This document shows positions 22,601 through 53,100 of a DNA stretch of 64,000 bases, piece after piece. Every line of letters starts with the position of its first letter. The first letter of the stretch is position 1. The notes beneath the pieces were generated by a model that saw only the letters and a program-made list of their open reading frames with translations, was not told the origin of the DNA and did not search any database. The translations under genes were made by a program, and so were the position numbers. Location: contig NC_049979.1 of the NCBI RefSeq assembly GCF_000003815.2, positions 19,645,654-19,709,653 on the forward strand, in the 5' to 3' direction. This stretch comes from Branchiostoma floridae (taxonomy: Eukaryota > Chordata > Leptocardii > Amphioxiformes > Branchiostomatidae).

Positions 22601-22798
22601 TTAATAGGCCTCCCTGATAGTATCGACTTCTGTCAGTTTCTAGGGTTTATCATACAAATAATCCGCATCTACTCCATTAAGCGACCACCGAACTAATTAT
22701 GCAATCCTACACGATATTATTGCAGCGTTTTACATAGACTACATCTATAAGAAACGCACAAGAGAACAGCTTGTGCATCAGTGAGACCGCCAGAGCGA
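18404..22798. other. Intergenic: FAM89 promoter side and unassigned DNA
   Basis: The first few hundred bases beside FAM89 are more GC-rich, as expected of a promoter and leader on the - strand. The rest, up to the large inverted repeat, shows no conserved coding frame on either strand. Only the (GT)n tract at 19541-19626 stands out. Confidence 0.5.
19541..19626. repeat. (GT)n microsatellite
   Basis: A nearly pure GT dinucleotide run, preceded by GTTT, GCGT and GCGC variants from about 19493. It explains the Cys/Val and Thr/His open frames on both strands, which are not genes. Confidence 0.97.
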
Positions 22799-24453: not shown

Positions 24454-24934
24454 CCCAAATCATCGGCTTTAATTGATATAAAAGTATATAATTCCATTGT
24501 AATTGTATAGTTTCTTTATGCAAGGAAGTTATATAACCTCAAATTAAGCTAGTGTTTAGTATATCTCCGCGACTCAACCTCTGCTTGGAGAATAAACTTG
24601 GTTCAACATGTGTTTCTTGTTCGCATGGAGCCTGCCACCTGGCCTTATCAAACGGGGTCCAGTAGATGTTTTGTCATTTACATTGTTCGCTACCATTCAA
24701 TCAAACCAAAACATTAGCTTATAGCTTTTTAGAGCACTGACATAAATATACCCGACTACTAAAGCTAAGTCTATGTACAAAAAAACGTATAGAGTTGAAG
24801 ACGTTTAGGTACGCATTTGGCATGTTTGGTATGGTCCAATTGTCACCGGCAGAATGCCAAGGCGGGACGGTGCCAAAAAAACAAATTATGTTGCTTCGGA
24901 ATTTATAGCACTCCAATAGCTTCAGTCATTCAAC

Positions 24935-33900: not shown

Positions 33901-36900
33901 AGGTAAGCAATGTATCAAACTGTCTTGTATATATATACATATATGTTTAATGATCTGGACGTTTGCGGTTGGTTGTGATAGTAATCTCACTGACAATCTA
34001 AATACATTATTGAATTGTTGTTTTAATACTTTATTTGCAGGCAAACGAAGAATGGAGGGTTGTGTTGACCCGCATGGAAGAGGATATGGGCAAGGCTTCC
34101 AACACAGAGGCACGAGTAAAATCGGAAGGATTGTTGAAGATTGACGATGACCAGAGCAGTGCTGTGGCACAGGCCAGACCTCTGGAATTCAACCCAGAGA
34201 AGCACAAGGCATGTAACTTGGTCTATTTGTTCACTTTAAAACCCTATATTGAATGCTGAATGAGATGTTTCTGTTTCATCAACTCCCATCCTTTCTCTTT
34301 CTCCCCCGTCTTATGTATGTTTGTCTTTGGTGTTGGTTTAACCAAATAACGCCTACCTCTTTTTATCGGTTAGGTGCTGAACTCTGAGCTCAAGAACTTG
34401 TACACTGCCATCACTCGTGCAAGGGTGAACGTCTGGATTTTCGACGAAGACACAGCTAAGCATGCCCCAATGTTCAAGTATTTCCTTGCACAGCAGTTTG
34501 TCGAAGAGCCACAAAGGGATGAGCAAGGTGAGTACTGTCCTTTTTGACTGTCCATGACAGATCATGGTAACAGTCTTGATCCTGATATGTTTCCTGGGAC
34601 AACACCTTATCTGACTTGTATTTATTTTAGGTCAGCTGTCTTCCAACGTCTTCGTGAAAGAGTCCACACCTGAAGAATGGTGTCAGCGGGGTGAGTACTT
34701 CTACAAGAAGGAGCGATGGGAAATCGCTGCAGACTTCTTCAAGAAAGGAGGAGATCGGAAGAAAGCAAACATGGCCTTGGCACAACATCTCGCTCATCAA
34801 GCCAGCCAGGACGCGACTATCACAAGAGAGAAACACAAGATAAGACAGAGGTTCCTGGAGTCAGCAGACCTCTTTCTGCAAAGCGGAAATCACGTGGACG
34901 ACAGAGACGCCCTGGTCAGAGCAGCCCGGTGCCTCACCAACTCAAGGGACTACCAGCTAGCAGCTCAGCTGTTTGAACGACTTGGGGAGGTATGTTGTAA
35001 CTTTTCACTCCTTCACGATAAGTGCTATATATGTAACTATGGTTTTCATCATTCCCCAGAACAGCCCATGTGGCGTTATAGTAATTAGTTGATAGTGCTC
35101 TGTACACAAATAATTCCATGGCACCATGCTAAAAGGACAGCTTTTTCATGATGTACTAGTAATGCCTTGCCTTATCATGACCACTTATTTATTAGGGATA
35201 ACAGGGCCAAAGAACAGAAAGAAAAACTCTTGTAGATGGTACCCATGCAAATGTATCCTGGGATTTATCATCCTAGTGCTTTGAAAATTGTTTTCCTGTG
35301 CACACAAGTACTAAGTACCACGTATACCAAGTGAGGCCAAACAACATGGAGATGTCAATAATGTGAATGACCACAAGAGGCAGAAGGACAACTACAGTTG
35401 TTTGGCACAAAGTTGGTAAGAGAAGTTCTTAAGCGAGGTATGCATTTCTGTTCCTAGTTTTCAAGCGCTGCCCATCTGTACCAGAGAGAAAACATGAAAG
35501 TGGAGGCCAGTCGCTGCTTCGTGCAGGCCGGAAACTTCAAGAAGGCGGTAAATTTCTTACGAAGTGTCGATGAGTATGAAGCTGCTGCTGATGTGTCCGA
35601 GCAGTATGTCAAGTTGCAAAGCAAGTGCCAGCAGGAGGGGCTGAATCCAACTGTTGTAATGACAGCGCCTATTCACACACCAGATAACCTTCTCCTTGCA
35701 GCCATTGACCACTACCACAGGCATGGCGAAGAAGAAAATATGGTAGCTTGTCTGAACCGACTCCCAGTTGATACCCGTCTGACATTCTTCAAGAAACACG
35801 GCCATGAAAAGGAAGCAGCAGAGCTTCTGAAGAAAGAGGGAAGGGGTCAGGAAGCGGCCGAGCTGCTGAAATCAATAGGAGAGTTTGAAGCTGCCGCCAA
35901 AGCTGCAGACCAAAACCAAAATCCACAGTTTGTAGCCGAGTGTCTACTCATCCAAAGTCGCAAGCAGAGGAAGCATACGACAACTGACATCCAAGGGACC
36001 AAGGACAACCTGATAACTTGTATGTTCCTATACAACAAGTGTGGCAACAATGAAGGCAGGGCTGAAGCTAAGATGATGCTTGGAGACTTGACAGATGATG
36101 ACAGTATGCTAAAAAGTGCTATCAAGCACTTTGGGATCAATATTGCAGGAGCTCTGGAGGCAGCAGCCCTGCTAGTGAAGAGGAAGAAGACCTTGACGTT
36201 CAGTGATATTCACCACATCCTGGCACTCATGGAAGACTTCTTCAGCCTGATAAGAGCTCTCTTGCTCTTCAGGGGACACAGTGTAAAAGAGCAGCAATGG
36301 ATAAAGGCATGTGAGCTATTCTACGGTGTGAAACGCACAGACGTCCGCAGTGCAACATTCTCTTCATCCGAAGAGCCACGTATCTTGGATGCCTTGGACA
36401 GAGACTTTCCTGGGAAAAGCAAGTCTACAGCGAAGATGGACCTCCACACAGCAAGAGCATGCATGGCAGGAGACCTCCTCAGAAACATAGATCAGCTGAA
36501 AGAAAAGTTGACAAAAATGCTACAGTCTATTGCAACAAGAAGCCGAGTATGCCATATGTACACAGCTGGATTGAGCTGTTGGAAAGGGGATGCCTGTGCT
36601 TACCTACACCATGCGTATGACAAGGACACTCTCAATTCGCTTCTGCAAGCAACGGTGCTTCTCATAAAAGTTCAAGGGCTCTTTGACCTTGGATATGAGA
36701 AGATAAAAGACAGCACATGGGAGACGGTACAACAGGCTTTCGCTTCCCACAAAGAATGTGGTGCAGAGAAAGGCAGGCTATGTGATGACCTATACGATAT
36801 CCTCTTCCCAACACACGGCCACCAGAGGCTTCTCACTCAGAGCTTCTTGACAGCTAGAGATGTTTTCCACAAGTTTCAGGGAGATGCAATTGTTTTGTCA

Positions 36901-39159
36901 TGCATTCGCGACTATGCCAGGTCTCTATGGGAATCTGCCAGTCACAGCGAAAAAAGATCAAACACAGACCTCCTGATCAAGATAGCCCACCTGTTTCGAC
37001 TAGCCAAAGACCCACCAGTTAACTTCTCAAGTCTACTTGTGTCTGCCGAGGAAGGGTTCAAGAAGGAGGCTTTGAAAAGACGCCATCCAGAGAAGATACC
37101 ACTTCACATTGGCATGATCTGCTTGAAGGGTGGTACGACCAATCCAGTGTTTGTCAGCGTCATGAGAAGACTTGAGGAATTCATCCAAGACATCTACGTA
37201 AGGGAAAATGTTCTGTCTTCAATGGGCAACATGAGGGCTTTCATGGGTTTGCTGGCTAAGAGGGCTAAGGAGCCACTTATCCCGTCGTTTGCAAACACTT
37301 GCTTCTTCTTGGAACTACTTGTTGTAATCTGCTACTCAATGTATGCCAAGATGAACCAACACATGCTGCTTTGCCTCCCTGCAAGCTACATCTCAATGGT
37401 CCACTTGTTTGATCGCCTGTGGAGCAATGGTAGGACCTCTATCTATTCATCCATCGAAAGGTTGCCTTACAGGAAAGATGAGGTGCTAGAGAAGATTAAT
37501 CAATGCATTTGGTTCATCATAGACATCATCTGCCAAAGTGAAAAGTTCCCTGATTTCAACGTCATTGATGATGCCTTCCGTCCAAACATCCCTGACTATG
37601 CGGAAAGCGGCGAGATGGAACGAGTCTTCATCCTGGCAGCAGTGTTGATTTGTGGTTGTGGTGGGCCTGTGGCAAAGAATGCCGAGATTCCTTTGCGGAG
37701 AGCTCTGTACCAGATTAACATCAAGAAACACTTTCCACAACGACTTGCAGATGCCATCAGAGGAATGAGATCAGCCAAAGGAATACGGGATGTTGTGATC
37801 CTCCTACGAGACTTACTACAGGCCAGGGATCAGGAGTACCTTCGGCACTGCTGTTGGAAATATCCAGGCAAAATGACAAGGGGTACCGGTATCTACAGGG
37901 GACTCAACTTCGAGCAAGTGAAGCCTGATATGTTCATCAGAGGTTTCTGGCGAGAGATGGCAGTAGAGTTCTACTCCCATGATGATGATGTTGTAACGCA
38001 TGCCAATGACAACACTGTCCACTCTCACGCTGATGATGCTGTGAATCATACCGACGACAACCCAGTTAGTGCGCTCTCACAAAACGACATGTGCGAAACG
38101 TCTGGCAATGACGTCCTCAACCCACATGGTAGCGCAAGAACTGTAGAGATACCGGTAGAAGCTTCACAGGCTGACTTGGAAGATGACATGTTTCATGCCC
38201 AAGACGAAGATGATGTCATCATTGAAGATGAATTTGAAGAAGAGGAAGTTGATGATGGTACCCAGACTGCGGATGATCCTACACTTACAGAAGGCCTTGA
38301 AAATATAAATAGAAGGATTTTGGAACAACAAGCTGATATGAAGCGACGACAAAAGGCAGCAAGCACAATTCAACAGTTTTGGCGTGCACTTGGCAGAATT
38401 GGGCCAAAGATTGAGAAAACAGTGTTCGAGTCAGCACACAGGATTACAAACATTGAACGTCAGATGTCAGTGGAGCAAGATGACCTGCGTGAATTCAAAC
38501 TTGACGACACAGGATGCCGCATATGTGGCGTCACTTTTGGGTCTCGTCCACATATCCGTGATGACGCGGAAGAACAGGAGGAAGATCAGGAAAGGGAAAA
38601 CTTCGAGGAAGCCTGGGATGTAGATCCTGATGGGGTCAAACCAGAGGAGGAAGAGCTAGATATCATCACTCGCGAAAAGCATTTGCAGGACCCAATGCAT
38701 TCAAAGAATCTTAGTGAGTTTGCTCAGTTCAAGCAATTCTACACCACAGATGTTGCTAGGGTCCAGAAACGGTTTGACAAGTTCACACTTGAAGCTGATA
38801 ATGACAAGGAGAATGAAGGAGCGGTCATGTTGGAAATCCAAAAGGTAAACACAGCACAGGACTTGCTTCGGAAGTTACTCGAGAAGATCAAAGATGAATG
38901 TTATTGGAACAAGCGACAGGATGCCTATGAAGCACTTCGCAACCTTCAAGAGGCTCTTGTTGCATTTCGGAGAGCAAAGCGTCTCATAGAGAGACAGGCT
39001 GATGAAGAGGGCACATTGGCGGCATTCGCGGATGAAGAAGGCGAAGAGTTCCGCAACCTTGACGAAGATGACTTCATCGCTGTTGGTGTGAAGAAACAGC
39101 GTGCAAAGGGCAAAGGCGGTCGCCAAAGGAAGAAGAGAACTAGAAAGAATCAGAAGTGA
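24935..39159 (+). CDS. TRANK1: TRANK1: TPR, ankyrin repeat and helicase protein, about 15 exons
   Basis: Exons fit at 24935-25064, 26556-26797, 27287-27452, 27708-27825, 28052-28275, 28476-28760, 28925-29209, 29618-30055, 30359-30461, 30756-31196 (then a 100-N gap), about 31321-33902, 34041-34208, 34374-34527, 34631-34989 and 35458-39159. All joins outside the gap keep frame. The product is about 3130 residues plus the gap; human TRANK1 is about 2925. Order: an acidic N-terminus, TPR-like helices (exons 2-3), ankyrin-type repeats (exons 5-10), an SF1 helicase core, then a long helical region with a CCCH finger, an IQ-like motif and a Lys/Arg tail. TRANK1 (lupus brain antigen 1 homologue) is linked in human genetics to bipolar disorder; its biochemical role is unknown. 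Exon 1 is the least certain: it has the right phase (A + GG = Arg) but no homology I recall. Confidence 0.93.
25065..26555 (+). other. TRANK1: TRANK1 intron 1
   Basis: Donor A/GTAGGT after residue 43 and acceptor CTCTCAG before GGTTGAAG restore an Arg codon. Most of the intron is a single mobile element (25373-26291). A short direct repeat (CCTGTCTACCTGG) lies just before it at about 25285-25312. Confidence 0.7.
25373..26291. mobile_element. DNA element with GCGTAGAGCGTA repeats, in TRANK1 intron 1 (919 bp)
   Basis: The tips are inverted, TGAGGGCCCCAATG on the left and, inverted, TGAGGGCCCCCATG on the right. TAGC flanks both sides (25369-25372 and 26292-26295), fitting a 4-bp target duplication. 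Inside the left end are about six diverged copies of GCGTAGAGCGTAATCG; inside the right end three more in the same orientation. The middle has a roughly 50-bp block repeated (TGCAGGAAATTGCGTTTCAG near 25605 and again near 25897) and a 52-bp exact-looking tandem duplication (about 26070-26174). No transposase was seen. Confidence 0.75.
26556..27825 (+). CDS. TRANK1: TRANK1 exons 2-4: TPR-like helical pairs
   Basis: Exon 2 contains FRQGDYFSAAHWWSEALQYA and LLLNRSTCAQNIGREDMALSDA-type helices; exon 3 continues with GYLKAGLSALRMQRFDQAL, a typical TPR A/B pair. Exon 4 (GFRVEVLLQTIRP...) leads to the ankyrin region. The region aligns in order with the start of human TRANK1, where the second TPR reads GYYRAGYSLLRLHQPYEAA. 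Confidence 0.85.
28052..31196 (+). CDS. TRANK1: TRANK1 exons 5-10: ankyrin-type repeats and linker, up to the gap
   Basis: Ankyrin signatures are scattered: GDTPIHALL (exon 5), GNTLLHVVTMADRD and DPGITNTDGKKAVHYA (exon 6), GDTPYHAAVQ (exon 8), SSGNTLMHVAVKGK (exon 9) and DPSVKNNEGMTPLDYL (exon 10). Exon 7 is a Pro/Gln/Ser-rich linker followed by a helical hairpin (ARKFMQEGKSMDALKIFART) resembling a TPR. Exon 8's donor is weak (G/GTGGTC) but its phase is right. Exon 10 runs into N at 31197. Confidence 0.85.
30598..30660. repeat. (TTGG)n / (TTTG)n short tandem repeat in TRANK1 intron 9
   Basis: A run of TGGT and TTGTTTG units with two interruptions, between exons 9 and 10. Confidence 0.9.
31197..31296. 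other. Assembly gap of exactly 100 N inside TRANK1
   Basis: The round number suggests the placeholder for a gap of unknown size. Frames on the two sides do not match. Just after the gap, the true frame has a TGA at 31302-31304, so coding probably resumes after an AG acceptor near 31320 (ACACCAG), or the bases at the gap edge are wrong. Missing coding sequence and an intron are both likely in the gap. Confidence 0.95.
31321..34527 (+). CDS. TRANK1: TRANK1 helicase core exons (SF1, UvrD-like)
   Basis: The exon to 33902 and the next two carry the motifs in order: Walker A GRSGTGKTT (32100-32126), motif II VYVDETQDFTQAEL (about 33312-33353), motif III GDTAQSI (about 33400), motif IV-like NYRSH (about 33547), motif V TIYESKGLEFDDVLLYN (about 33836-33886), and motif VI YTAITRARVNVWIFDED in the exon 34374-34527. 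The set DEtQ, GDTAQS, LEFDDV and TAITRA is that of UvrD/Rep-type SF1 enzymes, so ATP binding looks intact. A long acidic, Glu-rich insert lies between motifs Ia and II (32245-32360), as in human TRANK1. Confidence 0.92.
34209..34373 (+). other. TRANK1: TRANK1 intron with GC-AG splice sites
   Basis: The protein must read NPEKHK then VLNSELKNLYTAITRAR. The only in-phase cut after KHK is AAG/GCATGT, with acceptor GGTTAG before GTGCTG. A GT two bases further on would put the next exon out of frame and meet a stop at once. Confidence 0.75.
35458..39159 (+). CDS. TRANK1: TRANK1 last exon: C-terminal helical region with zinc fingers
   Basis: A single 3.7 kb exon starts in frame after TTCCTAG (FSSAAHLYQRENMKVEASRC). 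Its first third is a run of TPR-like helical pairs (FVQAGNFKKAVNFLRSVDEY, ELLKKEGRGQEAAELLKS). A CCCH finger of spacing C-x8-C-x5-C-x3-H lies at 36550-36609; human TRANK1 has a similar finger (x8, x4, x3). Near 38360 an IQ-like stretch (STIQQFWRALGRI) is followed at about 38514 by a CRICGVTF zinc-knuckle half. The very C-terminus is coiled and acidic, then basic (KKQRAKGKGG...), which could bind RNA or act as a nuclear signal (inference). Stop TGA is at 39157-39159. Confidence 0.9.
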   Translation, partial: FSSAAHLYQRENMKVEASRCFVQAGNFKKAVNFLRSVDEYEAAADVSEQYVKLQSKCQQEGLNPTVVMTAPIHTPDNLLLAAIDHYHRHGEEENMVACLNRLPVDTRLTFFKKHGHEKEAAELLKKEGRGQEAAELLKSIGEFEAAAKAADQNQNPQFVAECLLIQSRKQRKHTTTDIQGTKDNLITCMFLYNKCGNNEGRAEAKMMLGDLTDDDSMLKSAIKHFGINIAGALEAAALLVKRKKTLTFSDIHHILALMEDFFSLIRALLLFRGHSVKEQQWIKACELFYGVKRTDVRSATFSSSEEPRILDALDRDFPGKSKSTAKMDLHTARACMAGDLLRNIDQLKEKLTKMLQSIATRSRVCHMYTAGLSCWKGDACAYLHHAYDKDTLNSLLQATVLLIKVQGLFDLGYEKIKDSTWETVQQAFASHKECGAEKGRLCDDLYDILFPTHGHQRLLTQSFLTARDVFHKFQGDAIVLSCIRDYARSLWESASHSEKRSNTDLLIKIAHLFRLAKDPPVNFSSLLVSAEEGFKKEALKRRHPEKIPLHIGMICLKGGTTNPVFVSVMRRLEEFIQDIYVRENVLSSMGNMRAFMGLLAKRAKEPLIPSFANTCFFLELLVVICYSMYAKMNQHMLLCLPASYISMVHLFDRLWSNGRTSIYSSIERLPYRKDEVLEKINQCIWFIIDIICQSEKFPDFNVIDDAFRPNIPDYAESGEMERVFILAAVLICGCGGPVAKNAEIPLRRALYQINIKKHFPQRLADAIRGMRSAKGIRDVVILLRDLLQARDQEYLRHCCWKYPGKMTRGTGIYRGLNFEQVKPDMFIRGFWREMAVEFYSHDDDVVTHANDNTVHSHADDAVNHTDDNPVSALSQNDMCETSGNDVLNPHGSARTVEIPVEASQADLEDDMFHAQDEDDVIIEDEFEEEEVDDGTQTADDPTLTEGLENINRRILEQQADMKRRQKAASTIQQFWRALGRIGPKIEKTVFESAHRITNIERQMSVEQDDLREFKLDDTGCRICGVTFGSRPHIRDDAEEQEEDQERENFEEAWDVDPDGVKPEEEELDIITREKHLQDPMHSKNLSEFAQFKQFYTTDVARVQKRFDKFTLEADNDKENEGAVMLEIQKVNTAQDLLRKLLEKIKDECYWNKRQDAYEALRNLQEALVAFRRAKRLIERQADEEGTLAAFADEEGEEFRNLDEDDFIAVGVKKQRAKGKGGRQRKKRTRKNQK

Positions 39160-40736: not shown

Positions 40737-41216
40737 TCGGGTTATTGTTATTGGGTGGGCCGCCAGGGGCTGAATTGCGAGGAGCTTACAATAGGCGGGG
40801 CTGAATCGCAAGGGTCTGGAGCGAGCTGCCATTCGGCGCCACTCAGGTGACCTCAATACGACTGTCGCAAGTGTCTGGAGCGAGCTGCCATTTGGTGCCA
40901 CTCAGGTGACCTCAATACTACAGTAATTGCCCCAGGTGCGGCCAAGGTACTGTAGGTTTTGAGGCACTCACACCGCACCATCGCACGTGTGGCGGGTTCT
41001 TTAACGTGCCTGGGGTATGGCTCTCCCCAGACACGGGACCTCCATTTAACGTCCTATCCGAGGGACGTCCCTAGCCGAAGCTAGGTACTCATTTTCACCT
41101 GAGTGAGGAAAGTCATGTAAAGTGCCTTTCCCAAGGACACAAGATCGGTAACACGGCAGTCGGATTCGAACCCGCAACCTCTCGGTCACGGGGCGAACAC
41201 TGCGCTACGCGGTCCC
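40737..41216 (-). mobile_element. tRNA-derived SINE (about 480 bp)
   Basis: Read on the - strand, the head has a pol III A box (TAGCGCAGTGT, 41208-41198) and a B box (GGTTCGAATCC, 41172-41162) at tRNA spacing. The body follows with GGGAAAGGCACTTTACATGA, a central block shared by several invertebrate SINEs as I remember it. The tail ends in AATAACAATAAC near 40740. Towards the tail, a block of about 58 bp (GTCTGGAGCGAGCTGCCATT) is duplicated in tandem (about 40806-40860 and 40866-40920). Confidence 0.85.
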
Positions 41217-41778
41217 ACACATTAAGATGTGGTTTGTGACTGTCAAAAAGGCGAGACAGACTTGCTGTTATCCACTCCCAGGGTGGTATTATGTCAACAG
41301 TCTTATTCACCAAGAGACAAGGAAAACAACCGGCAGACATAAAGCTCATTTCATGTACATTGTATTGAAAATAATCTCTGTAACTTTCGATCTATATTAA
41401 CATGTAACAATCAACTACACAAACAGGAAAATCTACAGTAGCAGCTCTGGGCAAACCTGAAAAACAACATTATGTACATTGCTACATGTATATACATTTA
41501 CATATGTATCAAAATTGGTATGCAAACTCATTCGTACATAAATCAGTCTAAAGATTGGCAGTACTACCATATCTCAACAGACACCTCCTAAATTACTTGC
41601 GACACTGTCGTCTCGAACAATAAGACAGTGTTGATCAAATCATCCTGAGCAGCAATGTAGCCCTGGCAACTATGGCTTCTTAACAATAAATCTCTTCAAT
41701 ATTACCACTGACGAAGTTCGTCAACATGCATGTGTACCAACATGGGAATGAAAAAAAATAGGATTTTGCCGGAGGCAT

Positions 41779-42449
41779 CTAGTGTGACATGTCCATGACA
41801 TCAGCAGAAGTCACTGTCTCCCACGATGAGCTAGTCTTGTCGATAGGGGGCAGTCTTCCCAGGGTGATGCTGCCGCCGCCTCGTCTCTTCCCCAGGTTGG
41901 CCTGGAACGGCATCGCCCTGGCTCCCAAGTTTCCCTTCTTACCTGACAGGGCAAACAAATTGCATGTTGTTAGACAAGATCACGATCAGAAGATGATGAC
42001 CATGATAGAAATTACAGTTGAAGAACATAACCGGAAGGGAATCTGCAAAAGAAGAGAAGGTTCATTGTGATGGGTCAAGTCCACTCTTCAAAGTTCTTGG
42101 GATGACTCCACTATTTTCAGTCCAAAGGTCCAGAGGACAGTTATAGAATTTTCATCTGACAGTGACTTTTTTTAAAGGTATACACATACCTCCAAATTTT
42201 TTATGGCTGTCTGTCCATCTTGTTCATGGAGTGACCTAGTCTCGCGAGCAAGAGACCTAGTCCCCGTGAATAAGATGGACAGATAGCCATCGAAAATTTG
42301 GAGGGACTAATGAATCTCTTCAACAAAGTCTAGAGGAAATGTAAATCATGACAATATTGATCATAATGGTAACTTACGATTGCCCCATGGCGGTAATGTT
42401 CCATAGTGCCTTCCACGTGGAGGCAGTCCTCTCATTGGGCGAGCTCTCA
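41779..42449 (-). CDS. ROCO-CARD exons 10-11: Arg/Gly-rich tail
   Basis: Exon 10 (42449-42378) reads VRARPMRGLPPRGRHYGTLP and exon 11 (41942-41779) RKKGNLGARAMPFQANLGKR then SITLGRLPPIDKTSSSWETV, ending ADVMDMSH and TAG (41781-41779). The tail is basic and disordered by composition; I recognise no domain. Confidence 0.7.
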
Positions 42450-45400
42450 CTGCGAAATGAGACGAGACAGGATGAGAATTCCATTGGCATTTTTGGTGAG
42501 AGGTTACATGTAATTGTATCAACAAAAATAACACATTCTCCTCTTGCAAAAAGGTAAAACCTTCTCAATGTAGTTCTTCCGCATGCTGTTTTCTTTCTTG
42601 TATACAATGTTTCTGTAGTTCATTCCTTTTTTCATAGGTGAATTATTCGTAATGTAATACTTTGAATAGTGGAAGATTTTCCTATACATCTATCACTTGT
42701 TTCTTTGCCATTTTCCACATCTTCCTGGGCTAAGGTGGTACAAATATCTAAAACTACGATTACAACAATGGAACATCTCCCGTCTTCGTACTTTTGAAGA
42801 GAGACCTGAGGTAACAGCAGAGTATCTTCCTTACCTGATGGTAGATGGGTTGGTCTTGTCAGCTGTCTCGCTAAAGCCGGGTAGCCGTACTTCTGAAGTG
42901 CCTTGCAGAATATCGGGAAGCCATGTTCAGGCCTGTGGGTAATACAATAAATTTTAGACTCGGCTATAACGCAATAAAGAGATTTCAAAAACATTAAATT
43001 GCTGCCTGAAACTTGGCATACATTAACGTCCTGGTTCAAGCCAGATTCATCATAATATGACAATAATCATTTCAGAGTATTAAAGAATTATCAAATGCCT
43101 TTGAAACCAATGGATTATTCCTGGGTAGACTAACGATGGTGGCATGCTTTTATAGATCTCACAAGAGCATGAGTAAGATGTATAAACAGAGCTTCCCATG
43201 AATAAACAAACAAAAACAAAAGCTAAAACATCTAGTAAAGATCCACACCTTTCGCTCAGGATGTCCACGAGTTTGGCGGCTTCGTCCTGTCTGGTGAGCT
43301 GTGTCAGTATGGCGGCCATGTCTGCCTCCCTGATGGCGTGGTTCTTCAGCATGTAGTCCCGGATGTCGCGCACGTCCAGGTGACGTATGATAGTCAGGCG
43401 GTGACGTTGCAGCGCCAGCTTGTGTTGTGCCTCAATACCTACAAAACAGGTTTAAAGAAACATAAGTAATGTGCCCTGATATTTTCTTATTTTTTGTACC
43501 AATCTATATGAGGAAAACACATGCTAAGTTGAGTATAATTCGTAGTTAGAGGAGATTTGTTTTGAGTCTCCAAACGTTTTTTTTTTTTAATTTACTGTAG
43601 AAGCTTTTTCATCATGAGAAATGCGTACGTAGCATTTAACGTTACTGATGAAATAATCATTAGTTCATTGCAGTCACAAACTAGGTAGCAGACAGTGAGA
43701 TGAAACTTCCCGGGAGTATTTGGCCCCACATTACTTTTTGCTCAGTCTTAACAAAAGTACATGTACATTCGTATTCAATATCGTACACGTGATCCTAATG
43801 ATCTAGACACCGACCTTTGTCGTCGTACGACTTGGCGACGTAGTCGTTGACCATGGGGAGCCGCCCGATGGTGCTTGGGGCGTGCAGGCTGCTGGAGATC
43901 CCCGGGGAAATAGTCGACTCGCCCAGAGACAGGTCCTTAACAGAGCTGGACATGGACGCCAGGGACGACTGTTGGTCCTTCAGACGAACGGATGGCACCT
44001 TCAGCTCTGAAAGTAGAAAAATCCGTGTGCGATGTTAGCTTTTAAATATGTCTGAAATTAAATGACCTTATTCTTGCAGCAGGATCGAAAGTTGTTTCTG
44101 TACTCAGGCACTATATTTGTTGGATAACCTAACCGAGCTAGGAAAATTTAGAAGCTAAAATATTTTTGTCGGCAAAGCATCGTCATGACATTCTCCAAAC
44201 AGAGTTTGGGTCGAGGAGAGGGAGGTAGTGGCTGGGATTTTTACTGCTCCTGAGTGGAGGGAGCGGTAAAAATCCCGTCCATTCCGGACCCCCGGACCCA
44301 ACCTTTGTTTGGAGAATGTCGTCATGTAACCCTAATGATCGCTGCGAATATAATGTGTCCCTGAAGGTCAGACATCGAAGTTAGGGCTGCCCATTGACAA
44401 GCATGTTGAAATACACTGAATGAAGGCTTCAAAAAAGTATTAACCCATAGTTCAATCTTTAAAATTCTTCTCCACCAGAAAGTCACTTGGGTCTAGTTTA
44501 TAAGCATTCAAAGAAAACAGAGGGTTGTTTGGCTCATTCTCGGAGAAAAGCTCGCTCTATGAAAGAAACCTCACCTTTGACCCATTTTCCCTCCTGATAC
44601 AACCAGTAGCACCCTATAACTAAAACCTGTCCTTACACCAGCTGAACTGCTGAACTGAACAAATTTTGACCCAAACAGGAAAGCTTAGACCCTACCTGTC
44701 TCTTCTAAGTCAAAAAGTCTCCAGATTGGGCAAAAATTTTCAAGGAAAAGAAGGATTTTCAAGGATTTTAAGTCACACCCAAATCGTCTTCCCATTTTTT
44801 GCCCTCTACCGCGCAACGCAACTCTGACGTCAGCCCTGAAGTGCTATGAGCTCTGACACTTAGATGGAAGTGTTTGTCATGTACAGATAGATTAGATATG
44901 ACAGACGATACCTGTCTTGGTGGCGATAGGCCTGAGCAGTTTGGCAGCGAGTCCCGGGTACCCGCACCGCTGCAGGGCGGCACAGAACACGTTGAAGGCC
45001 CGCGGTCCTCGCGCCATGATCATGTGGATGAGCTTGGCAGCCTCGTCCTGATTGGTGAGCTCCGTCAGGATAACCTGGAACTCAGCCGGCTTCAGAACCT
45101 TCCTCTGGACCAGGTAGTCTCGTAGGGGCCGAACGTTTAGTTCCTGTGGGACGACGTCGAGCATATTAGTCTCCGATCCATCGTTTAAGATTGTGTCCGC
45201 TCCAAATATTCAACAAGCTTAATATGGACAGCTTCTATTGGGATATTGGATTGTAGCAGCAGTATAGTACCGTATATACCAGACGTGCACTATAATCCAA
45301 CAATCCAACGCAATTGACGTCAACTTAGTAAACAAATACCTATAAAGAAGCCCACCTGTATGATAGTAGCCCGGTGCTGCATGAGGATCTCCCGGTACCT

Positions 45401-48400
45401 GTCCTCACCGACCGCGGCCGTCAGAGGCAGGAGGGACGGTACTGGGTCAGGCTGTATGACCACCTCCACACCACTGCCCAGGTCCAGCTGTGGGATCACT
45501 GCGGAGAGGACGTAGGTAGGTAACGTTATCACTATTCACATGTAGTCGCCACATGCACATTTGAAAGATATGAACGATCCTTCTCTCTTTAGTCTTTGTT
45601 ACGTTAGAAAACTTTAATACTGTACAAACCTTCTGATGCTTCTTGAAACGGACTTAAGTCTAGTTGCTAGATATGCTATGACCCATTGATTCGTGACAAC
45701 ATGCTGCTTCCTGATAATCATTTAGTGACAAAGCTGAGGTGGGCAGAAGCACTAATGAATAATGCATCTCTTGTTGATGTATATATGATGTTGAAATATA
45801 GGGTTTAACGAGTTTCCTCTAAATCATGCTATAGTGTACTAGACTATGTTGTGCACTTTACTACATGTTGTGAAGATAGTGCATCCTCTTGAAAATCATA
45901 TCGGTAAAGATCGTTACACACCTGTAGTCATCTTTGGTTTGATGTCGACTGCAGGAGTCTTTGGCGTGTTGACCACATATCTCCGTAGTCCTCCCGTCTC
46001 TGTCAGAGAGAACAGAAAAGCAAGTTAGCACATCTTAAAATCTCCTGGTTTCTTTAACTAATATAAATGACATAGTACATGTATGGGATTTATAATATAT
46101 TGCAGATAAAATATTAGGTTGGTCCATTGCTGATGCTGAGTGGGAGGAATGATTTACATTTTGAAAAAAAAAAGAAGTACGAGGTAGTGTTTATCTAACC
46201 TTCATCCGGCGGGAACACAAGTTTGGGATCCACGAAGCCCCCGGCGGCCCTGGGACAGATCACACGCCTCTTGCCACGAGGCTGGCGGAGAACCTCCTAG
46301 ATAGAGGAGAAAAGGTATTGGGTGAATGTAGAAACGTTGCGGGTTTGATGAAACACCAAAAGGAAGCTTGTCCTAACAATGTTCACGCAGTGCACAAGTG
46401 TGTGAAATGTCAGGGGCAGTGTTAGGGTTAGCGTAATGAGTTATGCACAACAAGTACATGCAGTTCTATACCCACCTTGTAGAACATGTGTGGCATCTCA
46501 ATGTTGCGCTTGACGCAGTGGGGGCAGACCAGATAGACATCGTGCCTCAGGCCCGGCCAGCTGGTCAGTAGAGCAGCCACTCCCTGGAAAAGTACACAAA
46601 ATTTACTATAACTTATAAGCACAAATTCAAAAGAAGCATTAAACATTATTATTGGCAAAGTAGACAATAATAAAATCATAAATTGCATATGGAGTATAGT
46701 GAAAAATGTTACCCGATAGATTCTGAGGATTTCCGTCCACATGGTGTCTATCTCGAAGCTGTCCCCTCGCATGGCCAGCTCCACCACCGCGGAGCTCTCC
46801 GCTGCCCTACGGCCCAGGTAGACTCTCATCCGGGAGGGTGTCGTCGCCAGGACCCCATCCTTCCAGTCCGCACGGGTAGCCACCGGATCGATGTACTCCT
46901 GCATACGGACACTGGCTGCTTCAAAGAAGCCCGTCGGATACCACTGTCTAAAGCCAAAGATGATGGTGAGTTGTTCGGTGTCCTCCGGTACCCTCGGTGG
47001 CCAGAACAGCTCGTAGTGTGTCGCCTTGGCGTCGTCCGAGAAGTACCACGGGACGTGCATGACTCTGTTGTCGGACCGGCTGGTCGTGACGTACCAAAGG
47101 CCGAGATGCTGCAGGGCGGCGATGACCCCAGACAAGATGTCCCCGTACAGATCGCCGAACTGGCTCCACAGGAAGCGCAGGATCGTCTCGTCGAGGATGC
47201 CGTGTTTGAGGAAATCCGCCTTGCGGTCTTCGAAGTCGTCTTCACTGATGTTCCTGACGCCAGCTGACCGGAAGCGTGGGTGGTTGAAGTCGAAGAGCTT
47301 CTCGATGTCACCTCTGAGCAGGAACAGGAAGATGACCTTGATGACCTTGAAGAACTGTGTAGGGTTGGGGAACAGCAGGTCGCTCAGGAGAGGAGACTCA
47401 ATCTCGGCGCCAAACCAGAAGATGTCCCGTCTGTGGTGAAGGAACCTGATTGCGATTTCCAACTTTGGGCCACTGAGACCTGTCAGCTCTCGGGCGACTT
47501 CTTCTACTTCGTCCCATGTCATGACTTGCCTCCCCTCCCCGTGCCTCTTCAGGACGGTGTACAACTCTCTCCATGACCACGGCACCGGGAAGGCCTCGCT
47601 GTTAGCTGGCTTCTTCTCCTTCATCATGAAGCCGACGATCTCGTTTGCTAAGTCGTCCAGACCAGCTAGCTCCGGTGAGGAGCTGACCGCGAACACTTTG
47701 CTCGGCAAGCTGCAGCGATTGCGGATGAAATGTTCCAGCTCCTGTCGTCTCTCCAACAGCATCTCCCTGTTCAAGCCGTACAGTTCGTTGGACGGTTCCA
47801 GTCTACTGTGGCTTTTCATAGCGTCGTTGATGTCTTTGGCTTTGGTCTGCAGGTCCGATATGAGGTGCTGCTCTTGTTGCTGGATGCGCGCCATGATTTC
47901 CACGTGCTTGGCGGCGAAGTCTTTGGCTGTGCAGAAGTCGCTGTGAGTGCCGACCAGAAGGACTCGGCACTGCGGCACGCGAGCGTTCAGCAGCTCCAGC
48001 CAGTTCCCGACCGCCTGTCTGTACTTCGAACTGACGTACTCGTGTGCGTTGAACAAGACCAAATACAGGGCGTTCTTAGGAATAACCAGCCGGTCGGTGA
48101 AGTAGTCGAAACCGCTGGTGTCCACCAATTCCACTTCGAACTCGTCAAACGTCCACAGATGACTCTCCGGGACGGTGGGGTTCTCTGGGTAGAACGGTTC
48201 GTCGTCCTCTCCTGTCAGGTGAGACTCACTCTGCAGAAGTGTCCGCACCAAGCTGGACTTCCCTGAGCCGGGTCCTCCCAGCACCACCACCTTGTGATGA
48301 GGCATCTGCGCGATCCCCGTTCTCTTCATCTCCGTCACATACTCGTATATCATGGGCAAACCTTCGTTGCAGACGTCTATGGGAGGCTGGCGGAGGGGGT

Positions 48401-50051
48401 TGTCCTTTACCGTGAGCACTGTCAGTCCCGCCATTTCCAAGATGGCGTTCGGCAAGGCTTCAATGTTGTTACCATCCACGAGAAGAACTCTGAGTTTCGA
48501 CAGGAACTTCAAGTCCACGGGCAGCCAATCGATGTCGTTTTCTCCCAGATCAAGTTCCTCAAGCTCATGTAGCAAAGTCAGCTCCTTAGGGAAGGCCTCG
48601 AACTGATTGTTGCGAAGCTGTACCTTCTTCAGACGTTTTCTTCCCTTGATGCCCTTCAGAGTGCTCAAGTTGTTGTTGCTGACATTTAGTTCCTGTAGCT
48701 CGCCCATGTTGGGGAGCAGGTCCGAGATGGAGCTCAGGAAGTTGTTCTGTAGACAGAGGATCTTCAACTTCCCCCACTTTGGTGCCTGGCCGGTAGGAGT
48801 CGTAGTGAACAGCTTATTGTCCGAAATGTCCAGTTCTATCAACTTGCTCCTCTGGAGGAGAAACGCGGGTATGGAGGTCAGACAGTTCCGCTCAACGTTT
48901 ACTTTCTTCAACCTCTTCATGAGGCATTCCTCCTCTGCCACATCTGCTATATGGTTGTTCGACATGTCCAGTTCCTCCAACACGACGAGGCTCAACACAA
49001 CTGCAGGGATTTGCACGAACTTGTTACCGGCCAAGTTGAGTTTCCTGAGACGCTTGGTACACTCCAATTCGTAAGGCATTTCCTTGATCGCATTGTTCGA
49101 CGCGTCTAAGATTTCTAATCTCTCTAGTTTCTCTACAATTTCAGGAAGCGTTTCAAACCTGTTGTCTGACATCTTCAATCTCTTGACGCTAGTGGCACCA
49201 TAGATTTTACCCTCTACGATCCAGTCTGCCATCTGATTGTTCGAAATGTCAATATCTTCCACTCCTTTCAGTAGAGACACGATTTTGGGAACAGACTGGA
49301 ACTCGTTCTGAGAAAGATTGATTCTTCTGAGTTTTGACAGGTGGCAGGGTCCATCCGACACCCTCCGGAGTTTGTTAGCCGAAGCATCCAAGACTTCGAG
49401 ACTCTTAAGGTCAAGTATGAATCGAGGTAGAAAGGGCAGCTCGTTGTGGCTCACGTCCAGTCGTTTGAGGAACCTCATGCGGCACTCCTCGTCGTCAGTC
49501 ATTTCCCTCATAGTGTTGAACGATACGTCAAGTTCAATCAGAGCGCGCATGCCCAGTACGGCCTTCGGGAAGGACACGAACCTGTTCCGAGACAAGTTTA
49601 ACTTGGTGACTCTCTTAAGCCTCGGCTTCTCCGGGAACGTCGTGAGTTGGTTACCGGAAAGATCCAGCTCTTCTAGATTATTCATGCCAAGAAGTACTTC
49701 GGGTACAGCCTTGACTAGACGGTTGTTTGAAAAGTCAGCGCGCCGGAGCTTTACCAGGGAAGCCATCTTTAACGGCAGAGATTTGATGAGATTTTCCTTC
49801 ACCAGTAGAACCTCGAGCGACCTCATGTCCGCTATGTCGGGCGTGATCCGCGCGATCTTGTTGTAACTCAAGTCCAAGGTCACGACGTCCTTGAACTGGT
49901 AGACCTGGAGGGGCACGGTGACCAGGTCACACCGGCACAGGTTCATCTCTCTCTTGCCGCTGTCGTCTGACGACACTCTGGACGCGATGTCTCCCATGGT
50001 CAGGCTCATGGCCGGGGCCACGGGCTGCTGCATCACGTCAAGGGCGGCCAT
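41779..50051 (-). CDS. ROCO protein: LRR-Roc-COR with two CARD domains, 11 coding exons
   Basis: Coding exons on the - strand: 50051-46713, 46583-46476, 46296-46200, 45999-45922, 45498-45356, 45143-44912, 44006-43815, 43438-43249, 42932-42835, 42449-42378 and 41942-41779. Every join keeps phase with GT-AG sites, giving about 1570 residues. Order: about 22 LRRs (residues about 25-560), Roc GTPase (about 580-790), COR (about 800-1110), a short exon with CPHC, a Pro-rich linker, CARD1 (about 1257-1330), a Ser-rich linker, CARD2 (about 1410-1490), and an Arg/Gly-rich tail. LRR-Roc-COR resembles MFHAS1; CARDs in a ROCO protein are not known to me from vertebrates. ROCO GTPases act as dimeric switches and CARDs recruit partners with CARDs, so a signalling scaffold in immunity or cell death is the likely role (inference). 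Confidence 0.88.
42189..42304. mobile_element. Hairpin MITE in a ROCO-CARD intron (116 bp)
   Basis: Arms CCTCCAAATTTTTTATGGCT and, inverted, CCTCCAAATTTTCGATGGCT enclose a short centre (GTCTCGCGAGCAAGAGAC). The whole element could fold into one stem. Confidence 0.8.
42835..43438 (-). CDS. ROCO-CARD exons 8-9: second CARD, split by an intron
   Basis: Exon 8 (43438-43249) gives HLDVRDIRDYMLKNHAIREA, then LTRQDEAAKLVDILSER; exon 9 (42932-42835) gives PEHGFPIFCKALQKYGYPAL. The intron cuts between the fourth and fifth helices in phase 2. The octamer QDEAAKL and the FC.ALQ..GYP.LA block are shared with CARD1, so the two are duplicates. Confidence 0.82.
44184..44326. mobile_element. Hairpin MITE in another ROCO-CARD intron (143 bp)
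   Basis: The left arm CATGACATTCTCCAAACAGA and the inverted right arm CATGACGACATTCTCCAAAC pair, as do inner blocks GGGATTTTTACTGCTCC and GGAGCGGTAAAAATCCC. Different sequence family from the MITE at 42189. Confidence 0.8.
44912..45143 (-). CDS. ROCO-CARD exon 6: first CARD
   Basis: One exon holds a whole CARD: ELNVRPLRDYLVQRKVLKPA, then ILTELTNQDEAAKLIHMIM and GPRAFNVFCAALQRCGYPGL. The motif order L-x2-L-x3-L..G/VL...QD.A.KL....GP.AF..F..AL...G...LA is the CARD consensus. It follows the linker exon in phase 0 and leaves in phase 1 (ACA G/GTATCG). Confidence 0.85.
46713..50051 (-). CDS. ROCO-CARD exon 1: LRRs, Roc GTPase and COR
   Basis: The ATG at 50051 opens MAALDVMQQPVAPAMS. LRRs follow without break, each of about 23 residues with LxxLxxSxNxL cores. 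The Roc P-loop is GGPGSGKSS (about 48290-48265), the switch II region VDTSGFD, and the base-recognition motif THSD (in place of NKxD). All are in the expected order and the P-loop Lys and Ser are present, so nucleotide binding looks possible. The COR part contains HVPWYFSDDAKATHYELFWP and GFRQWYPTGFFEAASVRMQE, like MFHAS1-type COR domains. The donor follows IYRR-type sequence at CGG/GTAACA; open frame beyond it is intron. Confidence 0.92.
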
Positions 50052-50073
50052 TTTGAAATGACTACAGTGCCGA

Positions 50074-50145
50074 TTATCTTACCTTAGACTTGACTTCAAA
50101 GTGTTCAGAGGTATACTCCTTTGTTGCTTTGTCTAAAGAAGCCAT
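50074..50145 (-). promoter_or_regulatory. 23-codon upstream ORF before ROCO-CARD
   Basis: An ATG with a good context (CAAAATGGC) opens MASLDKATKEY and stops at TAA, 22 nt before the main ATG. The words AAATGGC(C/T) precede both starts. Near its end the sequence reads AAG/GTAAGAT, a strong donor consensus, so it could instead be the end of an alternative first coding exon. Without splicing it would be an upstream ORF that limits main-frame translation. Confidence 0.45.
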
Positions 50146-53100
50146 TTTGCAATCCTCTTCAAATGGCACTTTTCTGAAAAGAAGAGACGGCAAAGTTAAA
50201 AAGAATATTGTTTAACTTCTCGGTATTGTTTAATATGTTGTCACAGAAATTTCAGAGCTTTTTAGTAAGAAGGAAAGAAATATGGACCGTAAAAAGTGGC
50301 ATATGTATGTACATTATCATGAAATGGTTTTATCTTTACATCCACACGCTCACACATGAGTTAATGAGACATTGCACGTTCAAGGATAAAGGAGACAACA
50401 GTACCCCCCCCCCCCCCCGACACAAACACACACATGTATGCACATATGACAGCGCATTCTCCATATTAACGATGACCGTATTTCTCGGTAACCTATACAG
50501 GATGTTTCTGAAGGAAAGTACACCTATCTTTGAATGATTATGATTACTTGGAGCGCATCACTATGATATGAAAAAAATCCACAACTGAGAAGAGCAAGAC
50601 AAGTATGCTTTCCATTGATGGCATTCCCCCAGTTGTTTATCAAGCAACCAGTAACTATGCCTAAACCTAAACCTAAATCTAATGTATTTTCTAACATCCA
50701 TTTCATTAAACCACTCGCGGCTTATAGCAATACAACGTGAGTCTAACTCAAATTGTCATTTTGGCTAGTACAGTAAAAATGGACATGACAGAAAATAGCA
50801 AACATGCATTGATGAACAGTATCATCGCCAAGCATCACTAGCGCATTACTCAAACATAATGGTCGTAGACTATTCAATGGGAATTAAATGTCTCAGAAAA
50901 AGACGTACGGCTAAGAGGAAATATATACAACCTTATACCCTAACTGATGAAAACGAGTGACAACCGGTGCTACAGAGGTAAGCGCCCTGAAGCCATTATG
51001 TCAATCAAGAAACATCAAGTTACCAACGCGAAGCTACATCACTGATTGTTATAAGGTGTGGAAAAGTTCTGACAAGAAAACAAGAACAATACCCACCACC
51101 ACACCGCTGCTGAAGTTTCCTTAGATTAGTGCTGACCCATAATGTCTATCGCGCCCCCGTCAATTGTGTGTGGTGAAAAGACCGGTTTCATATACACCCG
51201 CACGAGAAAACTCCGGGCGTAGGTTTACCTGTTGCCTAGCGGTAGCTAGTGCCAAACAAGAGATCACTGTACCAACAACACTCATTGAATCAGCGGACTC
51301 ACCCGGGAAATAATTAAACTCTGCTCGAAAACGCCACCACACGCGGACTCATTTCCATTCTTGCTGGCCAAAATTGAGAGATGTGGAAATCTCATAGTAC
51401 GTGGCGTTCGCTGGCAACTTTTTTCCGTTGACGTACACAAAGACACGTCTGTGACAGGTTACCAAACCTCCTGCCAGAAAAAGTAATATCGCGTTACAAT
51501 GGGTGGCATTGAGGTGAACAAAACTTAACCCATGGAATGTGTCAACAAAACCATGACACCCTTACAACCCACGTAAACCTTCAGTTAGGAGTGTAAGAAA
51601 ATCCGCCTTTTTAGCTGAAACCACGACGTTTTTGGTGTCACAAATGTAACATGTATACATAATAATCCTTCGGTTCCCCTCATCACTACGACAAGCATCA
51701 AAACACTAAAATGCCGCCCGGACAAAGGGTTCTGGGTTTAACCATAAACAACGTTTTGCTTATCTCTATACAACCTATCAAAGACCATTAAAACTAACTA
51801 GATCTCCTGACGTACCCCACAAATTAGTGCGCAGTGCGTGTGAATGGTACAGCAGGGTCAAAATGCGCCCTCCCTGTTCACATAGTAACGCTTTCATCGG
51901 TGTAGACCTCGAGTAAATAGTAGACCCTTTGCTACAAAAGGCGCTATGAGCGAACGTGGTTTCTGTATATGATTCTATCACAATTATTCTACCATTAAGA
52001 AAAAAGCGCCTCCGGTTGAAACATAAACACAGCTGTGGAAAGACTTAGTGTCCAAGACTTACGTGGATGTAACGCCAAGTTTGTATATCGCTTATATATT
52101 TTCGTTGCTTCAATTCGAAGGAAAATATACGAGCGTCACCCAAGAACGTTGAGACTAATACATTATGCATACTCGTTGTTCCTGTGAGAGTGTTGATACC
52201 AATTCGCAAGACTTTTACCACCACCTACTTCGAAGGGACCTTGTAAGATTGAAGCAGTAGTTCTGTACCCATATCAAGTGTGACAGGGGAAGCTACCAAC
52301 CATGCTTCTATAAAACGTTCTACCAAGACAACGCATGCACACAAAACTCTAAGTACACAAGTAACCAGCACAGTTTTAAAATGTTACAGATTTCAGATCG
52401 TTTCGTTTCGTATCGACATGTTGTAGCTAGGCTAAAGGGGAAATGAAGGACCAGCTAGTGCACATAGCATATTATAGAAAAGTGAACTGCTATCAATTCG
52501 TAGAATCTTCATAAACATACTACAGAAAAAGATATCAAATGAGAAAAGTCACCAAGTATCAGAACGTCACATATCCCGATGGTTACAGTTGCCATACAAC
52601 TGCAACAGTTAAAAGCACACAGCAACACGGTATGTGACATTACAAGTCGTCGGTCGAGACGGTGGCGTTACGAGTGACCTAAAACTGTTTGTAGATGCAA
52701 GCTAAAGACCAACTTACAGATATTCTGGAAACACGTACGGAGCGAACTGCGTCGTCATATAGACTAAACATGCAAATCTACTAACGTTACTGTTGGAGGT
52801 ACACACCTTCCACGTAGCTTGATCTAATGAGCCACACCAAGCTCCAAGATTTGTGACGACTCAACGCTGGGCTCTGAAACTGGTTGTCAAGCTCACTCCC
52901 TTATTGTAAGGCATGTCATTCACTGGGTACCCAATCTAGTGAAGCAAACACAGAATACATACCTTCCTAATCTCCCTTTCTTGTGTCCATTACGCCTCCA
53001 TAAGAGTTGCTTGCATATCGTAATCCATAAACTCACGAACTTTGAAAAGGGAGACTTGGATTTAGCGGGACAACCGCAGCCCGGGGTCTTCTTCGCCAAG

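What the first reader, a model, noticed from the sequence alone, without database searches (positions are those of the whole stretch)
41779..50051. ROCO GTPase fused to tandem CARD domains
Eleven coding exons join in one phase to give LRR-Roc-COR-CARD-CARD. I know of no vertebrate ROCO protein with CARDs (DAPK1 has a death domain, MFHAS1 none). Such a protein could couple LRR sensing and a GTP switch to CARD-mediated assembly of caspases or signalling filaments, making it a candidate undescribed immune or cell-death sensor.
Basis: partly seen in the sequence, partly recalled or inferred. Interest (0 to 1): 0.82.

Follow-up and report, generated by a model that had tools for sequence, protein, structure and literature searches.

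The report
LRR-ROCO GTPase with tandem CARD domains
A gene in what looks like a lancelet genome appears to encode one protein with a sensor part, a GTP-driven switch and two CARD domains of the kind that trigger inflammation or cell death, and other genes in the same genome join such a switch to CARD domains too.

Summary
Eleven minus-strand exons (50051-41779) join in one open frame of 1570 residues: LRRs, a Roc GTPase, COR and two CARDs (Pfam CARD E=2.6e-32 over the tail). Joins E1/E2/E3 are confirmed by uninterrupted ORFs of relatives in the same genome, and each CARD spans an exon join. The COR-to-CARD join (E3/E4/E5) rests on frame, distance, intron phase and analogy. No transcript was available, and reading through E3 meets a stop after one codon, so a CARD-less form or two genes remain possible.

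Of 47 places matching this Roc-COR in the 513-Mb genome, only this gene has a listed CARD within 60 kb. Eight of nine other tandem CARD pairs lie in one unspliced ORF with COR, on C5/C6. Their CARDs and COR look like other lineages, so ROCO proteins probably gained tandem CARDs at least twice. Four COR-B genes have death domains downstream.

Most likely it works as an NLR-like sensor with a ROCO GTPase switch and CARD output. ROCO proteins with CARDs are already reported from Trichoplax (PMC4104024), so this is a new variant of a known kind.

The parts
41779..50051 (-). whole 11-exon gene model, 1570 aa
46713..50051 (-). exon 1: LRRs, Roc, COR-A and first part of COR-B (aa 1-1113)
48372..49892 (-). 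leucine-rich repeats, about aa 54-560 (14 strict motif matches)
47937..48293 (-). Roc GTPase domain, aa 587-705; GGPGSGKS at 592, DTSG at 644, GTHSD at 701
   Evidence: 1.3e-4; motif positions; LRRK2 Roc, E 0.014
47364..47582 (-). COR-A, weak profile match aa 824-896
   Evidence: E 0.11; coordinates; homology to L022
46264..46973 (-). COR-B, aa 1027-1160, spanning introns 1 and 2
   Evidence: 1.5e-5 joined, none for the E1 part alone; alignment across both joins
46476..46583 (-). exon 2
46200..46296 (-). exon 3: end of the ROCO core; read-through meets a stop one codon after the donor
45922..45999 (-). exon 4: linker, phase 1-1, weak coding signal
45356..45498 (-). exon 5: linker and first helix of CARD1
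44912..45143 (-). exon 6: rest of CARD1
44913..45403 (-). CARD1 (aa 1240-1332), interrupted by intron 5
   Evidence: (1.8e-17)
43815..44006 (-). exon 7: linker between the CARDs, phase 1-1
43249..43438 (-). exon 8: first part of CARD2
42835..42932 (-). exon 9: rest of CARD2
42836..43436 (-). CARD2 (aa 1398-1492), interrupted by intron 8
   Evidence: (3e-15)
42378..42449 (-). exon 10: basic tail, phase 1-1, weakest exon
41779..41942 (-). exon 11: tail and stop codon

Best explanation
A ROCO gene of LRR type, without a close copy in its lancelet-like genome, acquired tandem CARDs at its 3' end, probably by exon shuffling at phase-1 introns. The encoded protein is most likely a cytosolic sensor that works like an NLR or apoptosome protein. 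The LRRs detect a ligand or partner, the Roc-COR pair changes its GTP-dependent monomer/dimer state, and the exposed CARD pair recruits CARD proteins (APAF1/caspase-9, NLRC4 or RIPK2 type), starting a CARD assembly that leads to caspase activation or NF-kB signalling. Shown here: the frame, the domains, exon joins 1-2-3, and other ROCO-CARD-CARD ORFs in the genome. Inferred: one transcript across E3-E5, GTP switching, the ligand, the CARD partner and the output.
For: One open frame of 1570 codons; CARD profiles 1.8e-17 and 3e-15. COR-B completes only across E1-E2-E3, and ORFs L022, L029 and L031 align through both joins. All 6 boundaries of the added modules (E3/E4, E4/E5, E6/E7, E7/E8, E9/E10, E10/E11) are phase 1, a pattern noticed after the fact. 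In 8 of 9 tandem CARD pairs elsewhere in the genome, COR and both CARDs share one unspliced ORF, so the order ROCO-CARD-CARD is really used. LRR-ROCO ORF L030 has a death domain (1.4e-14) in an ORF about 0.9 kb downstream on the same strand. Chance of a same-strand CARD within 6 kb is about 9e-4 per place. P-loop, DxxG and THxD motifs are present (meaning recalled). CARD1's best solved natural matches are APAF1 (1.7e-6), NLRC4 (7.9e-6) and caspase-9 (1.3e-4).
Against: No transcript. Reading through E3 stops after one codon, and the best-scoring ROCO relative, L022, ends its ORF about 39 residues after the aligned part with no further domain found in it, so E3 could end a CARD-less ROCO. An ATTAAA lies at 45618 in intron 4. 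E4 is weak and holds an ATG that could start a separate CARD protein. E4, E9 and E10 were not recovered by the de novo exon scan. Only 1 of 47 places matching this Roc-COR has a listed CARD near, so no second copy of the LRR form was seen. The Roc profile match is below cut-off. The structure model of Roc-COR failed (pLDDT 39).
Confidence: 0.66

Rival explanations
1. Two neighbouring genes: a plain LRR-ROCO gene ending in or just after E3, and a separate tandem-CARD adaptor gene starting at the ATG in E4 or in an unseen 5' exon.
For: E3 reads through to a stop one codon past its donor, not far from where the relative L022 ends. ATG in E4. ATTAAA in intron 4.
Against: E3, E4 and E5 fit in phase. 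Only about 700 bases separate E3 from E5, with no AATAAA on this strand from 41000 to 50300. In the open E5 frame there is no ATG before the one inside CARD1. Eight other loci have COR and tandem CARDs in one unspliced ORF.
Confidence: 0.17
2. One locus, several products: full-length ROCO-CARD-CARD plus a CARD-less ROCO (stop after E3 or E4), and perhaps an LRR/Roc-less CARD form from the upstream candidate exon 50173-50083, which could join E2 in phase.
For: Stops just after E3 and E4 on read-through. Intron 1 is 129 bases and open in frame. The upstream candidate exon has very strong splice sites and ends in phase 0, as E1 does.
Against: No RNA evidence. The upstream candidate's coding score is weak (LLR 2.7). 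It does not contradict the main reading.
Confidence: 0.3
3. The protein is a negative regulator or decoy: its CARDs sequester CARD proteins, as CARD-only proteins do (recalled), and the ROCO part only controls this.
For: Sequence cannot tell activator from inhibitor. The title of PMC4658032 (search listing) says that human MFHAS1 stimulates TLR2/NF-kB signalling following negative regulation.
Against: An attached sensor and switch suggest regulated activation. Other COR genes have death domains downstream.
Confidence: 0.15
4. Gene-prediction artefact: unrelated ORFs strung together.
For: E4 and E10 are weak, and a de novo exon scan did not recover E4, E9 or E10.
Against: Profiles for COR-B, CARD1 and CARD2 each cross exon joins, and the de novo scan recovered E2, E3, E5, E7 and E8 exactly.
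Confidence: 0.03

Closest known systems
LRR-Roc-COR ROCO proteins without other domain (MFHAS1/MASL1 of vertebrates, bacterial Roco)
   Same: LRRs, Roc and COR in the same order. MASL1 binds guanine nucleotides and GTP affects its complexes (abstract of PMC3995007). The core aligns along its length with LRR-ROCO ORFs of the same genome.
   Different: Two CARDs added after COR. No direct comparison with MFHAS1 was made; I had no sequence of it.
Trichoplax ROCO proteins with CARD or death domains (Civiero et al. 2014, PMC4104024)
   Same: Animal ROCO proteins carrying CARD.
   Different: I saw only text and a figure legend; the exact order of domains and number of CARDs per protein was not visible. 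A placozoan, not a chordate.
Roc-COR-CARD-CARD genes on C5/C6 of the same genome (L003/L017, L015, L018, L019, L020, L041-L043)
   Same: COR followed by tandem CARDs in one ORF; Roc-like exons upstream in the five looked at, confirmed by profile for L019.
   Different: Ankyrin repeats upstream where tested by profile (L018) and none of the LRRs seen. COR-B and the CARDs share one exon. CARDs and COR look like other lineages.
DAPK1
   Same: ROCO protein ending in a death-fold domain, tied to cell death.
   Different: DAPK1 has a kinase before Roc-COR, no LRRs, and a death domain (PMC6337361, passages); here LRRs, no kinase, two CARDs.
CARD-bearing NLRs and APAF1; lancelet APAF-J with two CARDs and NB-ARC (PMC11747288, passages)
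   Same: Nucleotide switch and CARD output in one chain.
   Different: The switch is a Ras-like Roc GTPase, not a STAND ATPase, and the CARDs are C-terminal.
Prokaryotic LRR-AP-GTPase-COR conflict systems (PMC8195603, passages)
   Same: LRRs, Roc-type GTPase and COR followed by a variable C-terminal domain.
   Different: The bacterial C-terminal domains named in the passage include effectors such as GT4, TIR and caspase; here CARD adaptors in an animal.

Membership tests
ROCO protein | Roc GTPase domain with nucleotide-binding motifs | tested here: met
   Roc profile 1.3e-4 and 5.1e-5, below curated cut-off; motifs at 592, 644, 701; alignment to L022, which scores Roc 4.6e-12
ROCO protein | COR domain directly after Roc | tested here: met
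   COR-B 1.5e-5 across E1-E3, just below cut-off; COR-A only 0.11; full-length alignment to ORFs with COR-A up to 1.2e-14
ROCO protein | GTP binding and nucleotide-dependent dimerisation | not testable with these tools
   needs protein
CARD protein | CARD profile match above curated cut-off | tested here: met
   63.6 and 56.4 bits against a cut-off of 23.9
CARD protein | six-helix death fold in a structure model | not tested
   the second structure job never got a place
CARD protein | homotypic binding to another CARD | not testable with these tools
   needs binding assay
NLR | NACHT or NB-ARC ATPase domain | tested here: not met
   Pfam NACHT only 0.17 at the P-loop, far below cut-off, and no NB-ARC listed; so it may work like an NLR but is not one
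DAPK1 | kinase and ankyrin repeats before Roc, death domain at the end | tested here: not met
   LRRs before Roc, two CARDs at the end; no kinase, ankyrin or death domain listed at E up to 1 or, for Roc-COR, up to 10
MFHAS1 orthologue | closest relationship to vertebrate MFHAS1 in a tree | not tested
   no MFHAS1 sequence at hand; in the own-genome tree the gene is a long branch without a supported close sister

The most novel reading that the evidence does not exclude
Lancelet-like animals run a class of GTP-driven inflammasome/apoptosome-like sensors built on ROCO GTPases. LRR-type and ankyrin-type ROCO proteins gained tandem CARDs independently, other ROCO genes carry death domains in the same place, and the ROCO module is an alternative to the STAND ATPase of NLRs and APAF1 for assembling CARD signalling platforms.
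Probability: 0.35. Interest if true: 0.85.

Novelty: new variant of a known kind. Interest (0 to 1): 0.62.

Why it matters
Known animal CARD platforms (NLRs, APAF1) use STAND ATPases as the switch (recalled). A ROCO GTPase joined directly to CARDs would be another way to do the same job. It would give a testable link between ROCO proteins, the family of LRRK2, and innate immunity or cell death. That two ROCO lineages in one genome carry tandem CARDs, and that others have death domains next to them, suggests the combination was selected repeatedly.

Tried and rejected
Single-sequence AlphaFold of Roc-COR gave mean pLDDT 39 and was not used for a fold search. Scans for relatives in prokaryote genomes (Roc-COR) and viral contigs (CARD1 part) found none at E 1e-3. 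NCBIfam matches were LRR look-alikes far below their cut-offs. tRNA scan: none.

I tested whether all ROCO-linked CARDs form one clade. With the 18 ROCO-linked rows the p-AU is 0.0002, but this also forces out two L005 CARDs that nest among them, so it overstates the case. With L005 included (20 rows) it is 0.021, and that still forces out one C16 CARD. I named the groups after seeing the tree, and the split between the two large CARD groups has weak support (79/88). The CARD set of 35 came from loci picked for score, long frames or tandem pairs, so it is not a random sample of the 149 matches; the COR tree holds 15 of the 59 Roc-COR matches plus the window gene and 5 C5/C6 genes. The short intron needed to join the upstream candidate exon to the start of E1 was looked at and not adopted.

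The COR-B genome search listed 40 matches; 8 have a same-strand CARD within 20 kb downstream and 6 within 1 kb. Four known ROCO-CARD loci (L015, L019, L020, L041) are not in that list, so it undercounts. Two of the 6 (C6:406666 and C5:25809207) have a single CARD match and were not fetched.
Full report
What was checked. The finding describes an eleven-exon minus-strand gene from 50051 to 41779. I found every exon border in the sequence and joined them: all introns are GT-AG, the frame is open and the product has 1570 residues. A codon-usage test, with exon 1 and the neighbouring 1233-codon ORF as coding model and the gene's introns as background, gave every one of exons 2-11 a score reached by at most 1.1% of 2000 intron segments of equal length. 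Exons 4 and 10 are the weak ones. Exon 1 is part of the training set, so its own score proves nothing. A de novo scan for open segments with good splice sites, with thresholds set near the known sites, recovered exons 2, 3, 5, 7 and 8 exactly and exon 6 with another acceptor. It missed exons 4, 9 and 10 and listed no strong coding exon upstream of the gene.

Domains. Pfam finds many LRRs in exon 1 (best 7e-46), a Roc match below its cut-off, and two CARDs in the tail with 2.6e-32 together. COR-B reaches 1.5e-5, just below cut-off, only when exons 1, 2 and 3 are joined; the exon 1 part alone gives nothing. COR-A is at 0.11 in the expected place. The P-loop, DxxG and THxD motifs are present (the meaning of the motifs is recalled). 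Against solved structures the best natural matches are APAF1, NLRC4 and caspase-9 for CARD1, after designed proteins, and caspase-9 and APAF1, weakly, for CARD2. The Roc part matches LRRK2 Roc at 0.014.

The same genome. The window lies in an unnamed assembly of 513 Mb in 431 contigs. The 12 numbered contigs up to C19 whose lengths were shown have 17-34 Mb. This fits Branchiostoma floridae, but that is recalled and not proved. CARD is found at 149 places, from 150 of 187 candidates scored. The Roc-COR of the window gene matches 59 stretches, 47 distinct places, itself included. The best-scoring relative, L022, is 28% identical, so there is no near copy. Uninterrupted ORFs L022, L029 and L031 align straight through the exon 1/2 and 2/3 joins, which settles those joins. 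Five LRR-ROCO ORFs (L022, L023, L025, L029, L030) were scanned; they score Roc up to 1.2e-15 and COR-A up to 1.2e-14, which carries the membership of the window gene.

Where the CARDs join. Of the 47 distinct places only the window gene has a listed CARD within 60 kb. CARDs among the 37 unscored candidates, or CARDs cut up by introns, could be missed. Elsewhere there are nine pairs of listed CARDs less than 700 bases apart, all on C5 and C6. In eight of the nine, COR-A and/or COR-B and both CARDs lie in one ORF without any intron: L003 and L015, L018, L019, L020, L041, L042, L043. The COR matches run from 8.6e-7 to 0.011 and only the COR-B of L018 and L043 pass Pfam's cut-off. The ninth pair, in L005, has no COR in its ORF. 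Upstream of five of the eight (L003 through L017, L015, L018, L019, L020) I saw Roc-like exons, and in some ankyrin-like ones; profile matches were made for the Roc exon of L019 and the ankyrin exons of L018 only. So the order COR-CARD-CARD exists in this genome independently of any splice model.

Two origins. In a tree of 35 CARDs from fetched loci the two window CARDs are sisters (99/95) and the CARDs of the C5/C6 genes form another group (99/97, with one C16 CARD inside it); the split between the two large groups is weak (79/88). Forcing all ROCO-linked CARDs together is rejected at p-AU 0.021 when the nested L005 CARDs are included, the fairer of two tests; the other gives 0.0002 but also forces the L005 CARDs out. 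The groups were named after seeing the tree. In a Roc-COR tree the window gene sits with the Roc-COR genes found by its own search, and the C5/C6 COR domains stand apart (100/100), though the window row is a long branch and the C5/C6 rows fill only about 41% of columns. The simplest reading is that tandem CARDs were joined to ROCO proteins at least twice.

Death domains too. Of 40 COR-B matches, 4 have a death domain within 6 kb downstream on the same strand, as has 1 of 59 Roc-COR matches, one of the same genes; the chance rate is about 9e-4 per place (150 of 588 death candidates were scored, so this is a lower bound). One is an LRR-ROCO gene on C12 (L030), where a separate ORF carries a death domain (1.4e-14), after a short ORF that looks by eye like the cysteine-rich COR end (no Pfam match). 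That parallels the window gene: a large LRR-Roc-COR exon, a COR tail, then a death-fold module. L030's splice model was not worked out.

How it was probably built. The borders of each added module in the window gene are phase 1 on both sides: exon 4, CARD1 (exons 5-6), the linker exon 7, CARD2 (exons 8-9) and exon 10. Equal phase on both sides is what exon shuffling and duplication need (established knowledge). The introns inside the two CARDs sit at different places, which a simple duplication does not explain.

How it probably works. By analogy with NLRs and APAF1, and with ROCO proteins whose oligomeric state depends on nucleotide (PMC6337361, passages; PMC3995007, abstract), the LRRs would sense, Roc-COR would switch, and the CARD pair would recruit CARD proteins. 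A lancelet protein with two CARDs and NB-ARC, APAF-J, binds DNA, and lancelets have RIPK2-like proteins (PMC11747288, passages). Bacterial LRR-AP-GTPase-COR proteins carry at least 24 different C-terminal domains, conflict effectors among them (PMC8195603, passages). These are analogies; nothing about function was measured here.

What speaks against. Exon 3 reads through to a stop after one codon, not far from where L022 ends. So a CARD-less product, alone or beside the long one, is possible, and a separate CARD gene starting in exon 4 cannot be excluded without RNA. An ATTAAA lies in intron 4. No AATAAA was found on this strand from 41000 to 50300, and the nearest one downstream of the stop is 1.9 kb away, so the 3' end is not defined.

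Known or new. Civiero et al. 2014 (PMC4104024; passages, section 5 part 1) state that Trichoplax ROCO proteins include CARD and death domains. A Roco review (PMC6337361, passages) recognises three topologies: LRR-RocCOR, with kinase, and DAPK1. The amphioxus domain-shuffling paper of Zhang et al. 2008 (PMC2575513, passages) has no word beginning with Roc in its main text. Huang et al. 2008 is not held. Aplysia has ROCO domains joined to TIR proteins (PMC9334734, passages). A figure legend on sponge NLRs names a COR domain (PMC12909245, passages). My searches listed no paper that by title or abstract start describes a lancelet ROCO-CARD protein: 20 of 10,926 listed; 25 of 32; 7 of 7; 20 of 39; 20 of 97; 10 of 219; 16 of 19; 7 of 8. 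They cover open-licence papers only, most hits were seen as listings, and supplements were not read. I therefore call it a new variant of a known kind.

Noticed in passing
window 50083-50173 (-): A candidate exon just upstream of E1 with very strong splice sites and an open frame ending in phase 0; 31 bases lie between it and the E1 start codon. It may be an alternative first exon that could join E2 and skip LRR-Roc, or part of the 5' UTR with a short upstream ORF.
   Followed up: partly
window 46584-46712 (-): Intron 1 is 129 bases and open in frame, so a form that keeps it would have 43 extra residues and no stop.
   Followed up: partly
window CARD1 (44913-45403) and CARD2 (42836-43436): The two CARDs are sister domains (44% identical) but their internal introns lie at different places and phases (0 and 2).
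   Followed up: no
window 29563-39159 (+): Large ORFs of a neighbouring gene on the other strand with ankyrin-like and P-loop stretches by eye, TRANK1-like by recall; convergent with the ROCO gene.
   Followed up: no
window 31197-31296: Assembly gap of 100 N inside the neighbouring gene.
   Followed up: no
window 22785-23168 (+) and 24114-24515 (-): ORF segments nearly identical by eye in opposite orientation about 1 kb apart, so probably a long inverted repeat.
   Followed up: no
L010 4301-7351 (+), L011 5465-8182 (-): CARD and AIG1/GIMAP-type GTPase domains in one ORF, another GTPase-CARD combination in the same genome.
   Followed up: no
G000 C6 about 361-466 kb: ROCO cluster in which three COR-B genes have death domains downstream while one between them (C6:406666) has a CARD 264 bases downstream, suggesting exchange of death-fold modules between neighbouring copies.
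   Followed up: partly
L013 3187-5034 (+), L016 3687-5201 (+), L007 1411-2298 (+): Ankyrin-CARD and CARD-B-box ORFs, part of a large CARD repertoire of this genome.
   Followed up: no
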